64,000 nucleotides of DNA from Phyllobacterium sp. OV277 (GTDB lineage Bacteria > Pseudomonadota > Alphaproteobacteria > Rhizobiales > Rhizobiaceae). The position numbers were made by a program, and so were the translations under genes. The first letter of the stretch is position 1, and each line of letters starts with the position of its first letter. Below are positions 34,760 to 40,616 of this stretch, piece after piece. Where the stretch lies: contig NZ_FNIY01000001.1 of NCBI RefSeq assembly GCF_900104355.1, forward strand, positions 186,001 to 250,000. The letters run 5' to 3'. The notes under the pieces were generated by a model, which was not told the origin of the DNA, ran no database searches, and saw only the letters and a program-made list of their open reading frames with translations.

Positions 34760-35868
34760 AGCGCTACACTCTTCAGCAGACTCTTTTTCTGAAGGCGCCG
34801 CTCCATGCGGATGACAAAGACCGCAAGCAACAGGACCAGCACACCGACAGTGAGGAAAAAGCCGGCTGTTCCAATCATCGTGCCGATTGTTTCGAAGGCA
34901 AGATAAAGCACCTCAACACAGAAAATCGCATAGGCGCTCCACCTGATGGCAAGATTGCGGTGGCCCGACAGGGCCAAACCGGCAATCGCAAGCGCCAGAA
35001 TGGCAAAGCCCGTTGTCACCTCGCGCGTCCGGCCAAACCCATGATCATCAAACTGGAAAATCATCAGCACCATGTGGGCAGCCAGAAAGCCATAGGCACC
35101 AAGACCTATACCCCATCCAGTCAGATCATCCAGAACCGGCGATCGCAATGCATCAAGCAAAAACAAGCCAAGTCCTGCGGCAAGCGACAGCCACAGGATG
35201 ACACTGACATCAAGATCGAAATGAACCACACAGACAAAGACCAACAGTAAGACTGCCAGGAAATGCCGCGCCGCGTCAGCTTTCACGTACCAGATAAGGC
35301 CTGCCGCCATGACAGAAAAGACTGGTACGAGCCAGACATAGGTCAAACGTGATGCATTATCCGGCTCCACGCTTGCCGCAAGATAGATACCGGCAATGAC
35401 AATGCTGGTTGAGACAAGCGTCGGTGATCGCAACAACAGGGCAGCAATAACCGTTCCGCCAGTCCACCACAGGGCAGCAGAGGCCATATCACCCGATAGA
35501 TGATACATCTGACCGACAAACGCGATACCGGCGCCGAAACCTATGGCGGCGATCAGATAGAGCGCTTCGCTGAAAATCTTGTCACCCCGGCTCGCCCGCC
35601 ATGCGCCGCCAAGATAACCGCACCAGAGAACAGCAAAGATCAGCCCAACGCGAACAAGCCTTGGCATGGCTTCCCAATTCGCAGCGATCAGGGACAGGAG
35701 CGCGGCGCCTAGCAGAATAGCGCCGAGGATGGCCAGAACATTGCCAAGGCCAAAGCTGACGCCCTGCCCGGCAATATCTTTGCGCAAGCGTTCTGCCGTG
35801 GCGTCATCAATCAGCCCGTCACGCTGCCACCGCGCAATATGCTTGCGCAGGGTGAAGCCGATTATCAT
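34756..35868 (-). CDS. DUF2157 polytopic membrane protein
   Basis: A 370-residue protein with a short soluble N-terminal domain (LRKHIARWQRDGLIDDATAERL, a DUF2157 hallmark) followed by about ten hydrophobic segments. It overlaps the next gene by ATGA. The ATG at 35868, with AGAAGG close upstream, puts this domain at the N-terminus; a longer reading from 35982 adds unlikely residues. Function unknown. The pair recurs across Proteobacteria. Confidence 0.82.
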   Translation of the reverse strand: MIIGFTLRKHIARWQRDGLIDDATAERLRKDIAGQGVSFGLGNVLAILGAILLGAALLSLIAANWEAMPRLVRVGLIFAVLWCGYLGGAWRASRGDKIFSEALYLIAAIGFGAGIAFVGQMYHLSGDMASAALWWTGGTVIAALLLRSPTLVSTSIVIAGIYLAASVEPDNASRLTYVWLVPVFSVMAAGLIWYVKADAARHFLAVLLLVFVCVVHFDLDVSVILWLSLAAGLGLFLLDALRSPVLDDLTGWGIGLGAYGFLAAHMVLMIFQFDDHGFGRTREVTTGFAILALAIAGLALSGHRNLAIRWSAYAIFCVEVLYLAFETIGTMIGTAGFFLTVGVLVLLLAVFVIRMERRLQKKSLLKSVAL

Positions 35869-36124
35869 GCCTTCTGCTCCCGATTCGAGATGTGTGACTA
35901 ATAACGATAGCCGTAATGAAAACGCAATTGCAGCCGGATTCGGGCAACAAACCATGAAGATGACAATTGTGCGGCGCAGCAATTAAAATCGATTAATGAT
36001 GCAATGCAACATATGCATAGCTGGCGTGCAAACTTGGCTCTGCACATTCGGCAAGGCATCCACTATCTTCAGTTCAACGATCAAGACTGATCAACGAAAC
36101 AATTTGAACCGAATGGTGAATGAA

Positions 36125-36271
36125 ATGAACCTTATCCGCTCTTACAGCAACTGGCGCCGTTATCGTGACACGGTTTCCGAGCTGAACCGTCTGTCGACCC
36201 GCGAACTGAACGATCTGGGCATCTCCCGCTCGGACATCCCGTTCGTAGCCAAGAAGTCCGCAGTACGCTAA
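36125..36271 (+). CDS. DUF1127 small protein
   Basis: A 48-residue protein: MNLIRSYSNWRRYRDTVSEL, then NRLSTRELNDLGISRSDIPF and VAKKSAVR. The LSxRELxDLGIxRxDI core is the DUF1127 signature, and the basic, tryptophan-containing N-terminus fits the RNA-binding members described in Rhodobacter (CcaF1-type). It is followed within 16 bases by three CCTCCTCCC-loop hairpins, the arrangement in which such a gene is cotranscribed with regulatory RNAs. An in-frame ATG at 36113 would add four residues. A promoter was not identified with confidence. Confidence 0.9.
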   Translation: MNLIRSYSNWRRYRDTVSELNRLSTRELNDLGISRSDIPFVAKKSAVR

Positions 36272-36286
36272 TCGCATAACAGAATA

Positions 36287-36322
36287 TCGCCGAGGCTCAT
36301 CCTCCTCCCAGAGCCTCCGCGA
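36287..36322 (+). ncRNA. Cuckoo/CcsR-type sRNA hairpin 1
   Basis: The inner stem GAGGCT/AGCCTC is extended by an outer TCGC/GCGA stem. The loop exposes CCTCCTCCC at 36301-36309. This anti-Shine-Dalgarno nonamer in a loop, repeated in tandem after a DUF1127 gene, is the defining pattern of the cuckoo/CcsR family. The boundaries are those of the stem. Confidence 0.8.
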
Positions 36323-36324
36323 TC

Positions 36325-36357
36325 AAAGGCCGGCACTCCTCCTCCCAGTCGGCCTTT
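36325..36357 (+). ncRNA. Cuckoo/CcsR-type sRNA hairpin 2
   Basis: AAAGGCC (36325-36331) pairs with GGCCTTT (36351-36357), and an inner ACT/AGT pair brackets CCTCCTCCC at 36338-36346. Stem sequences differ from hairpins 1 and 3 while the loop is identical, so the loop is what is conserved. Confidence 0.82.
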
Positions 36358-36366
36358 ACAAAACGG

Positions 36367-36405
36367 CACCCACCGCACCTCCTCCCGCGGTGGGTGTTGT
36401 TGTTT
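36367..36405 (+). ncRNA. Cuckoo/CcsR-type sRNA hairpin 3, also the transcript terminator
   Basis: A perfect 10-pair stem, CACCCACCGC/GCGGTGGGTG (36367-36376 and 36387-36396), closes a loop with CCTCCTCCC at 36378-36386. TTGTTGTTT follows, so this last hairpin also serves as the Rho-independent terminator of the DUF1127-sRNA transcript. Confidence 0.85.
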
Positions 36406-36410
36406 CGGGC

Positions 36411-36989
36411 CTACCTCTGGCTGTTGAAACCTCTCTCCTCCCAATCAGTCAAACGCATAACGTCAGGTTTTCCGCCCGCCGGCTCATACCAGGAGTCGAC
36501 GGCCCAGAGCGTTCCGGATTTGTCGCGCAGCACCGCTGCGAAATGCGGATAGCGGCCATCGACGAAGCTTCCGCGCGATTCCCGGCGGCTGACACTGTGA
36601 TGTCGCAACAAGCCAGCATTTTGCAAATAGCGCAGGAAATGATCCGTATTGGTGGATTCATCCACGCAATCCATCTGACCCTTCTGCCGTGCTTCGCCAA
36701 ATTCCATCTTTGGCCGGTCCGCCACGCCAATCACCTGTGTCGAGCGAAGCTCAAACACCTGCACGGCGCGCCGTATGGCAGCGCGCTCCGCATCGGCCGA
36801 TTTGCGTCCACTTGCCATAATGGCGGCAATCCGAGTGCGATCGCCTGATGTCAACGTCACCGGTGTTTGGAAGTAACAACCATAACCATGGCAGACACGG
36901 AAGCTTTGCGCATTGGCGGAACCTGGCCAAAGTGACAGCGCCGTAAAAAGAACCAACGACAGATAAAACCCTAAGCCTGATGTTTTCAT
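36411..36989 (-). CDS. Exported protein, possible transglutaminase-like cysteine hydrolase
   Basis: A 192-residue protein with a signal peptide (about 1-28, ending SANAQS). A CHGYGC motif follows near residue 33. Cys in QMDCVDEST, His in YPHFAAVL and Asp in WAVDSW occur in the Cys-His-Asp order of transglutaminase-like cysteine proteinases. I infer that fold; I do not recognise the family with certainty. The ATG at 36989 is taken because it starts the signal peptide; one at 37004 is alternative. Convergent with the DUF1127-sRNA locus. Confidence 0.7.
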   Translation of the reverse strand: MKTSGLGFYLSLVLFTALSLWPGSANAQSFRVCHGYGCYFQTPVTLTSGDRTRIAAIMASGRKSADAERAAIRRAVQVFELRSTQVIGVADRPKMEFGEARQKGQMDCVDESTNTDHFLRYLQNAGLLRHHSVSRRESRGSFVDGRYPHFAAVLRDKSGTLWAVDSWYEPAGGKPDVMRLTDWEERGFNSQR

Positions 36990-39588: not shown

Positions 39589-39739
39589 GGTTCGTGGTTC
39601 GTGGTTCGACAAGCTCACCATGAGGAGAGTGCGGATGAAAGGGAGTCAGGTTCTGCATTCCTTATGATCTGCAAAGTTGACGGTTATCGTTGCATCACCC
39701 CTCTCCCTCATGGTGAGCTTGTCGAACCACGAACCACGC
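39589..39739. repeat. Dispersed palindromic element, copy C
   Basis: Arms at 39589-39628 and 39699-39739 are reverse complements and match copies A and B. The core is the reverse complement of the copy B core (GGGAGTCAGGTTCTGCA here, TGCAGAACCTGACTCCC there), so this copy lies in the opposite orientation. The whole interval 39568-39773 has no gene. Confidence 0.85.
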
Positions 39740-39773
39740 ATCACGCGCGATATCCCGCAGAACAGTACGCGAT

Positions 39774-40616
39774 TCAAGCAAAGCGCATTGAAGCCCGGAG
39801 CATAACCCACTGGCGGCGTAGCGGCGAAACAACCGGCGTCTCATTCGCCACATCAAACCCACTCGCCTTGAGTTTCTTCAAATACATTCCTGTGAGACCA
39901 ACGGGCAGATAGGCAGGGCGCAACGTTGCTGGCAGTGATTTCGCCGCTGTTTCATACTTGCCAAGGTGATCCTCAGCCAGTGCAATCATCGCATCTATCG
40001 CGCGTTTGATTGCAGCCTTATCCGTACCTTCGAGCAGCATCTCTGCGCTGCAACCGACGGCTGCCAATATATCTGCCGGAATGTAAGTCTGGCCGCGTCG
40101 CCGGTGCAGCGGCAATAGCCGCAACAATCCGGTTACGGCCTGCGCAACGCCTGCATGCCCTGCAATATCTGCCTGGGCTGGTGCCTTTTCCGCATCCAGT
40201 ACCAGAGACGCCAGTTGGATCAGTGCCGAGGCCGTCTCACCGCAATAGCCCTCAAGATCATTGCGGCTGGGCATGGGATCATCATAGAGGTCGAAAATAC
40301 GCGCTTCGCAATAATTGTCGAAGGCGGCGCGTGGCAGATTGTACGTCTTGATTGCTTCCAGCAAAGCCGCTGCAACAGGATTGCCGACCGCTTCGCCATG
40401 CTCGGTGCCGTTGATCAGATCGCGCCACCACTGCAATCGCACTTCACCCGGCAGTGGATCGTGGATCAGATCACGGATACGCGCGATCTCCACATTGAAT
40501 GCGTAGAGCGCAGCCAAGGCACCCCGTTTCTCTTCCGGCGCATAAAGCACGGAAAGATAGCGGTCCGGATCGGCATCCCGCAATAATTGCAGACAATGGG
40601 ATTCATTTGCGTTCAT
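39774..40616 (-). CDS. Squalene/phytoene synthase-family protein (NDUFAF6-like)
   Basis: A 280-residue protein of the isoprenoid synthase fold. It has LYAFNVEIARIRDLIHDPLPGEVRLQWWRD near the N-terminus and EGYCGETASALIQL mid-protein. The first DxxxD prenyl-binding motif seen in true synthases is replaced by IRDLIHD, so catalysis is doubtful. Alphaproteobacterial members of this type are related to mitochondrial complex I assembly factor NDUFAF6. It lies next to an Mth938-domain gene, the NDUFAF3 type. The link to complex I is inference from those relationships. Confidence 0.82.
   Translation of the reverse strand: MNANESHCLQLLRDADPDRYLSVLYAPEEKRGALAALYAFNVEIARIRDLIHDPLPGEVRLQWWRDLINGTEHGEAVGNPVAAALLEAIKTYNLPRAAFDNYCEARIFDLYDDPMPSRNDLEGYCGETASALIQLASLVLDAEKAPAQADIAGHAGVAQAVTGLLRLLPLHRRRGQTYIPADILAAVGCSAEMLLEGTDKAAIKRAIDAMIALAEDHLGKYETAAKSLPATLRPAYLPVGLTGMYLKKLKASGFDVANETPVVSPLRRQWVMLRASMRFA

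What the first reader, a model, noticed from the sequence alone, without database searches (positions are those of the whole stretch)
36125..36405. DUF1127 gene followed by three tandem CCTCCTCCC-loop hairpins (cuckoo/CcsR-type sRNA locus)
Directly seen: three hairpins in 119 bases carry an identical CCTCCTCCC nonamer in their loops (36301, 36338, 36378) while the stems differ, and the last stem also terminates transcription. From established knowledge, this is the arrangement of the CcsR/cuckoo sRNAs after a DUF1127 gene (CcaF1-type) in Rhodobacter, where the loop competes for Shine-Dalgarno sequences. Inference: here the small RNA-binding protein and its RNAs form one stress-regulated unit, with three copies rather than the four of Rhodobacter.
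Basis: partly seen in the sequence, partly recalled or inferred. Interest (0 to 1): 0.78.

Follow-up and report, generated by a model that had tools for sequence, protein, structure and literature searches.

The report
Small-protein gene plus triple-loop regulatory RNA
A soil bacterium carries a tiny protein gene whose message ends in a known kind of regulatory RNA with three loops that could block the ribosome-binding sites of nutrient-uptake genes; the kind is known, but its likely switch, and copies of the same RNA inside phages, look new.

Summary
In detail: three hairpins with identical CCTCCTCCC loops follow a 48-aa DUF1127 gene. The RNA is a full-length member of the known family αr14 (RF02344, 114.7 bits, cut-off 58.8), the NfeR1/cuckoo type; it fails the CcsR1 cut-off (32.8 against 65.3). 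DUF1127 plus cuckoo RNA is already named the CIN1 locus (passage in PMC10253847). Host genus: Phyllobacterium. The RpoH idea is not supported. The promoter carries the published VtlR/LsrB box inside a TGCA-N9-TGCA dyad, 32 nt before CTATCT. That composite occurs four times in the 5.33-Mb genome: three precede αr14 loci, the fourth a DUF1127-like ORF. Best reading: a VtlR/LsrB-switched operon for a small protein and a three-seed anti-Shine-Dalgarno RNA aimed at transporter mRNAs; transcription, binding and processing are inferred. Outside the window, 40 of 56 triple-motif hits in viral contigs (16 distinct arrays) are αr14-like RNAs beside one kind of phage helicase, 31 with the VtlR box. Locus: new member of a known kind; phage copies: likely new.

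The parts
36014..36030 (+). 17-nt dyad TGCATAGCTGGCGTGCA, putative VtlR/LsrB operator; 36015-36027 fits the published VtlR box GCAT-N3-TG-N3-T
   Evidence: box from PMC7486931 (passage); conserved in position in Phyllobacterium orthologues. Alone, box (17 found, 15.5 expected) and dyad (3 found, 2.9 expected) are at chance in the window
36063..36068 (+). -10-like element CTATCT, 32 nt after the dyad
   Evidence: conserved block; the spacing of 32 recurs; no start site mapped
36125..36271 (+). DUF1127 gene, 48 aa, arginine-rich
   Evidence: PF06568 60.9 bits; in 19 orthologues 22 of 48 codons vary only synonymously and 8 change the amino acid
36282..36402 (+). αr14 (NfeR1/cuckoo-type) small RNA
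   Evidence: RF02344 114.7 bits, model positions 1-123 of 123; covariation
36286..36323 (+). hairpin 1; anti-SD loop 36301-36309
36325..36357 (+). hairpin 2; anti-SD loop 36338-36346
   Evidence: 4 of 10 pairs with changes on both sides in the genus
36362..36401 (+). hairpin 3 and probable terminator; anti-SD loop 36378-36386
   Evidence: 14 of 15 pairs never vary in the genus

Best explanation
A CIN1-type protein-plus-sRNA operon. A VtlR/LsrB-type LysR activator binds the dyad at 36014-36030 and switches on a promoter with its -10 near 36063. The transcript encodes a 48-aa DUF1127 protein and ends in an αr14/NfeR1-type RNA, cut or trimmed from the 3' end (in Rhodobacter RNase E and the DUF1127 protein CcaF1 do this). 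Its three CCUCCUCCC loops are redundant seeds that pair with GGGAGGAG-type Shine-Dalgarno sites and block translation, mainly of solute-binding proteins of transporters. Shown here: anatomy, family membership, covariation, conserved linkage, promoter composite, target-motif bias. Inferred: activator binding, transcription as one unit, processing, target repression, any role of the protein in processing.
For: RF02344 over cut-off, full length. Covariation over 29 sequences: 92.2% of cells paired, 31 of 37 pairs with changes on both sides, 0 of 500 shuffles as high on any of the five measures (relatedness is not controlled by that shuffle, but slid structures pair only 38-59%); genus only: 6 of 37 such pairs, 0 of 500 on four measures, 419 of 500 on 'further pair types'. 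DUF1127 directly upstream on the same strand: 20 of 48 αr14 in ten Phyllobacterium genomes, two in each (one search counts 49 there). 62 of 80 DUF1127 loci kept (best of 521 relatives found) have two or more CCTCCTCCC just downstream. Composite TGCA-N9-TGCA-N30-34-CTAT: four sites in the genome, reversed-pattern control 0; three at αr14 loci, the fourth before a 54-aa DUF1127-like ORF (16.6 bits, below cut-off 23.3). In 13 Phyllobacterium genomes 32 of 65 composite sites lie just upstream of an αr14, 24 at 204-219 nt (room for DUF1127) and 8 at 2-5 nt. Dyad with at most one mismatch plus CTAT at 28-36 nt upstream of 44 of 80 DUF1127 loci (29 of the 44 with two or more exact motifs downstream), 0 of 480 control windows. 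The genome has a LysR gene beside an oxidoreductase gene that looks like trxB, 1.5 kb from an AbcR-like sRNA that also carries the dyad, the gene order given for vtlR. Published: LsrB activates NfeR1; VtlR directly activates abcR1 and atu1667, orthologue of Brucella DUF1127 genes. Targets: GGGAGGAG-N4-12-ATG gives 27 hits, 26 sites; of 16 ORFs longer than 100 aa, 7 are transporter parts (6 solute-binding proteins, 1 ABC ATPase).
Against: No expression data. Box and dyad alone are at chance frequency in the window; only the composite and its conservation inform. 33 of 65 composite sites in the genus are not at αr14, and 36 of 68 αr14 lack the strict composite. Two of the five own copies lack the exact dyad: L003 (one mismatch, by eye) and L005. 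Most Ochrobactrum/Brucella-type loci have the dyad with one mismatch but no CTAT at that spacing. The target control is small and was scanned at a stricter E-value: AAAGGAGA gave 44 hits, 30 became loci, 15 had ORFs of at least 100 aa, 10 were scanned; none matched a solute-binding protein or ABC family, and three matched no family. The best RF00519 (suhB) hit has no dyad; the AbcR-like hit with the dyad is below cut-off (33.3 against 41). RNA binding by DUF1127 is disputed (PMC12501420, passages). A possibly relevant paper on LsrB and sRNAs in Agrobacterium (Eisfeld 2021, seen only as a reference) was not read.
Confidence: 0.75

Rival explanations
1. A true CcsR-type locus: RpoH-driven, stress-induced, several processed RNAs, as in Rhodobacter.
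For: Same gene order and loop motif; the CcsR1 model gives a weak hit (32.8 bits).
Against: Below the CcsR1 cut-off of 65.3; RF02344 is far better. No RpoH-type promoter by regular expression; VtlR/LsrB composite instead.
Confidence: 0.08
2. The hairpins are only a 3'UTR and terminator that protect or end the DUF1127 mRNA; the protein is the only product that matters.
For: The RNA starts 10 nt after the stop codon; hairpin 3 looks like a terminator. In Agrobacterium DUF1127 proteins act through the kinase PhoR (PMC12501420, abstract, passages).
Against: Loops are conserved while stems covary, the reverse of a plain terminator. The same RNA occurs with its own composite promoter and no DUF1127 between (C22 copy), and in phage loci: 0 of 40 show DUF1127 in the stretches held.
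Confidence: 0.1
3. The sRNA also or only has its own promoter inside the DUF1127 gene, apart from the operon promoter (does not exclude the rest of the model).
For: Eight αr14 copies in the genus have a composite promoter 2-5 nt upstream.
Against: For the paired copies the composite sits before DUF1127, at 204-219 nt; the sigma-70 scan of 35850-36450 found one site, at 35960-35989, far upstream.
Confidence: 0.15

Closest known systems
αr14 / NfeR1 sRNA family (Rfam RF02344; Sinorhizobium meliloti)
   Same: Three hairpins, CCUCCUCCC in each loop, variable stems, ~120 nt; model match over cut-off. NfeR1 is LsrB-activated and silences transporter and ntrBC mRNAs (passages in PMC10746234 and PMC7143759, one section of the former).
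   Different: Here the RNA follows a DUF1127 gene in one apparent transcript; NfeR1 has its own promoter. The site is TGCA-N9-TGCA here, TGCA-N6-GCAT in NfeR1.
Cuckoo RNA family and CIN1 locus (Reinkensmeier & Giegerich 2015; not held, seen only as cited in PMC10253847 and PMC4504443)
   Same: 2-4 hairpins with a conserved loop motif, beside a short DUF1127 gene.
   Different: No difference found; the original list of members could not be read.
CcsR1-4 with ccaF1 (Rhodobacter sphaeroides; RF02791)
   Same: DUF1127 gene directly before RNAs of this motif type (passages).
   Different: Four RNAs and an RpoHI/RpoHII promoter there; here one αr14 RNA, no RpoH site found, CcsR1 score below cut-off.
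VtlR-activated DUF1127 genes of Brucella and Agrobacterium atu1667
   Same: Short DUF1127 gene; the published box is present here.
   Different: The passages read treat them as protein genes, once as 'putative sRNA Atu1667'; none of them mentions an αr14 RNA behind the gene.

Membership tests
αr14 (RF02344) | Covariance-model score over the gathering score | tested here: met
   114.7 bits, cut-off 58.8, positions 1-123 of 123
αr14 (RF02344) | Three hairpins, each with CCUCCUCCC unpaired | tested here: met
   25 of 29 aligned sequences fold so with all three exact motifs
αr14 (RF02344) | Redundant silencing of mRNAs at the ribosome-binding site | not testable with these tools
   only SD-motif bias: 7 of 16 ORFs are transporter parts
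CcsR (RF02791) | Covariance-model score over the gathering score | tested here: not met
   32.8 bits against 65.3
CcsR (RF02791) | RpoH-type promoter | tested here: not met
   no match by loose regular expressions based on the S. meliloti RpoH1 consensus
Cuckoo / CIN1 | 2-4 adjacent hairpins with the loop motif beside a short DUF1127 gene | tested here: met
Cuckoo / CIN1 | Match to the original thermodynamic matcher | not testable with these tools
   program and paper not held
VtlR/LsrB regulon | Published binding box in the promoter | tested here: met
   GCAT-N3-TG-N3-T at 36015-36027, conserved in position; at chance level on its own
VtlR/LsrB regulon | Direct binding and activation | not testable with these tools
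   none
CcaF1-type RNA-binding DUF1127 | RNA binding and role in sRNA maturation | not testable with these tools
   domain only

The most novel reading that the evidence does not exclude
VtlR/LsrB, DUF1127 and αr14 form one regulatory unit across Rhizobiales, so effects ascribed to VtlR-activated DUF1127 'small proteins' may partly come from the RNA; and temperate phages have captured the αr14 RNA together with the host-type operator, placing it opposite their early replication genes, so that a host metabolic regulator drives a phage-encoded anti-Shine-Dalgarno RNA that reprograms host translation.
Probability: 0.5. Interest if true: 0.75.

Novelty: new member of a known kind. Interest (0 to 1): 0.5.

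Why it matters
Whether DUF1127 acts through RNA or protein is called an intriguing puzzle (PMC12501420, passage). A promoter-defined unit that makes both a DUF1127 protein and an anti-SD RNA gives a direct test: remove one and keep the other. It joins two literatures, VtlR/LsrB to DUF1127 and LsrB to NfeR1. The phage copies, if expressed, would be phage-borne regulators built from a host sRNA and switched by a host factor.

Tried and rejected
RpoH-type, alpha sigma-70 and EcfG patterns (the last recalled) in 35900-36140: no match. Weak Rfam hits 6C, mir-72 and sX13 are below their cut-offs and were set aside. DUF1127 as target of its own RNA: its SD-like GGTGA does not match the seed (by eye). 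Six cultured phages with the nearest helicases were checked in the 6.7-kb stretches fetched: 0 of 6 carry the array. BLASTN of two phage arrays in 50,697 phage records, and of one in 72,556 plasmid records, found nothing. The nearest cellular copies (up to 94% identical) are not beside the phage helicase in the four stretches fetched.

Limits of my counts. In one search the 68 αr14 rows are those listed, which counts 69 for these genomes. The 80 loci are related, not independent. A 100-aa ORF (L218) was left out of the 16 target ORFs. One of six folds (L169) used wrong coordinates and is void. One search flagged 47 of 56 arrays as three-hairpin; at least L132 (simple tandem repeat) and, by eye, L173 (coding-like) are false, so I use the 40 with the phage helicase; these hold 16 distinct array sequences (7 and 9). 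Papers not held: cuckoo/CIN1 2015, CcaF1 2021, CcsR 2015, Brucella small proteins 2018, αr survey 2012.

Full report
What is there. A 48-aa DUF1127 gene at 36125-36271 (Pfam 60.9 bits, cut-off 23.3) is followed after 10 nt by three hairpins at 36286-36401, each with CCTCCTCCC in its loop. The motif is found three times in the window and 0 of 100 shuffles reach three. The fold has z -8.5. The nearest database relatives place the window in Phyllobacterium: the DUF1127 protein is identical to those of P. myrsinacearum and P. calauticae, and contigs of 'same genus' genomes have the lengths of named Phyllobacterium contigs. Neighbours are a DUF2157 membrane-protein gene, a 192-aa gene without a Pfam match, and an aldo/keto reductase.

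What family. Rfam RF02344 (ar14) matches over its whole length with 114.7 bits (cut-off 58.8), CcsR1 RF02791 only with 32.8 (cut-off 65.3). The αr14 family is described as three hairpins with the ultraconserved CCUCCUCCC anti-Shine-Dalgarno motif and very variable stems (passage in PMC10746234). That is this RNA. [quoted passage not shown] So the arrangement is known; the original paper was not held.

Is it under selection. On 29 aligned relatives 92.2% of cells pair and 31 of 37 pairs have changes on both sides; no shuffle of 500 reaches any of the five measures, and slid versions pair 38-59% of cells. The structure came from one of these sequences and the rows are related, so these controls overstate the case somewhat. 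Within the genus (19 distinct rows) the signal is weaker but present: 6 pairs, 0 of 500 on four measures, 419 of 500 on 'further pair types'. 25 of 29 fold into three hairpins with all three exact nonamers unpaired; the four misses are L033, L040 and L045 (one nonamer altered) and L002 (one partly paired). In the protein gene 22 of 48 codons vary only synonymously and 8 with an amino-acid change, over 19 orthologues.

How it is linked. The genome holds five αr14 copies and eleven DUF1127 matches. Two αr14 follow a DUF1127 gene directly (43 and 47 nt from the domain end). In ten Phyllobacterium genomes 20 of 48 αr14 are so linked, two per genome; over all 28 genomes typed, 35 of 95 (partial lists). 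Of 80 DUF1127 loci from genome contigs, 62 have at least two CCTCCTCCC within about 380 nt downstream.

What switches it. The orthologue alignment shows a conserved block at about 36000-36070. In it lies GCATAGCTGGCGT, which fits the box GCAT-N3-TG-N3-T reported for VtlR (passage), inside the dyad TGCATAGCTGGCGTGCA, 32 nt before CTATCT. Neither box nor dyad is informative alone. The composite is: four sites in 5.33 Mb against 0 for the reversed pattern, at three of the five αr14 loci and before one DUF1127-like ORF below the Pfam cut-off. In 13 genomes 32 of 65 composite sites sit just upstream of αr14, in two distance classes that match the two architectures: 24 at 204-219 nt and 8 at 2-5 nt. 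Upstream of 80 DUF1127 loci a composite with at most one mismatch occurs in 44, against 0 of 480 control windows from the same loci; most Ochrobactrum/Brucella-type loci have the one-mismatch dyad but no CTAT at that distance. The genome has a LysR gene next to an oxidoreductase gene that looks like trxB, 1.5 kb from an AbcR-like sRNA that carries the dyad; that is the gene order given for vtlR. LsrB is reported to activate NfeR1 and VtlR to activate DUF1127 genes. I found no paper that joins the two in the listing and the passages read; Eisfeld 2021 on LsrB and sRNAs, seen as a reference, was not read.

What it may do. A seed complementary to GGGAGGAG before ATG gives 27 hits in the genome (backwards control 3), 26 distinct sites. 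Sixteen lead ORFs longer than 100 aa; 7 are transporter parts, six of them solute-binding proteins. For a weaker-pairing SD, 0 of 10 scanned ORFs matched such families (10 of 15 ORFs from 30 of 44 hits; three had no family). This agrees with the published NfeR1 targets but the numbers are small.

Outside the window. A scan of IMG/VR for three spaced motifs gave 56 stretches. Forty carry a homologue of one phage helicase in the same stretch, in two groups of 18 and 22 with 7 and 9 distinct arrays; 21 of the 40 arrays lie at least 10 kb from both contig ends (positions). In the two loci read in detail the array lies in the gap beside the helicase and on the other strand, amid replication genes by PHROGs. 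αr14 scores over cut-off in 11 of 12 viral loci scanned. The VtlR box lies at -74 from the first motif in 31 of 56, all among the 40, with a chance density of 0.017 per 160 nt; the strict composite is in 24 of 40. None of the 40 shows DUF1127 in the stretch held; only L142 and L159 do, whose arrays lie within 1.2 kb of a contig end and are probably host flank. The nearest cultured phages by helicase include Rhizobium phage 16-3, but 0 of 6 checked carry the array there. Close chromosomal αr14 copies with the dyad exist in one related genus, so capture from a host is the likely origin (inference). No paper on this was found with the searches; the library is limited to open-licence PubMed Central.

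Verdict. The locus is a real, conserved, ordinary member of αr14/CIN1 with a better-supported switch than the one proposed. The phage-borne αr14 RNAs are the part most likely to surprise a specialist.

Noticed in passing
L126-L181, e.g. L148:7518-7638 and L180:11517-11636: αr14-family triple anti-SD RNAs beside a phage helicase in viral contigs, many with VtlR-type boxes upstream.
   Followed up: partly
L005:1501-1616: Fifth αr14 copy of the genome follows a 151-aa ORF that resembles a phasin (by eye) and precedes a tRNA; its loops 2 and 3 are degenerate.
   Followed up: no
window 36282-36402 against L002:1501-1620: The two DUF1127-linked αr14 copies of the genome share hairpins 2 and 3 almost letter for letter, while hairpin 1 is unrelated: modules seem to be swapped or converted singly.
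   Followed up: no
G041:C130:31148-32772: Three DUF1127 and αr14-like pairs (below the αr14 cut-off) alternate in tandem, with a further DUF1127 upstream.
   Followed up: no
L037: In one relative (G014) about 266 extra bases lie between DUF1127 and the RNA; its promoter would lie beyond the stretch scanned.
   Followed up: no
L105 and L069: Records titled Bacillus subtilis SK6B4 and a Xylophilus MAG carry Pseudochrobactrum- and Brucella-like DUF1127 loci: probably contamination or mislabelling.
   Followed up: no
L162:13783-14088: αr14 next to a tRNA gene near the end of a viral contig, possibly host flank at an attachment site.
   Followed up: no
window 39600-39810: Short recurring repeat whose ORFs read MVSLSNHEPR; a similar stretch lies near L204, perhaps a REP-like element.
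   Followed up: no
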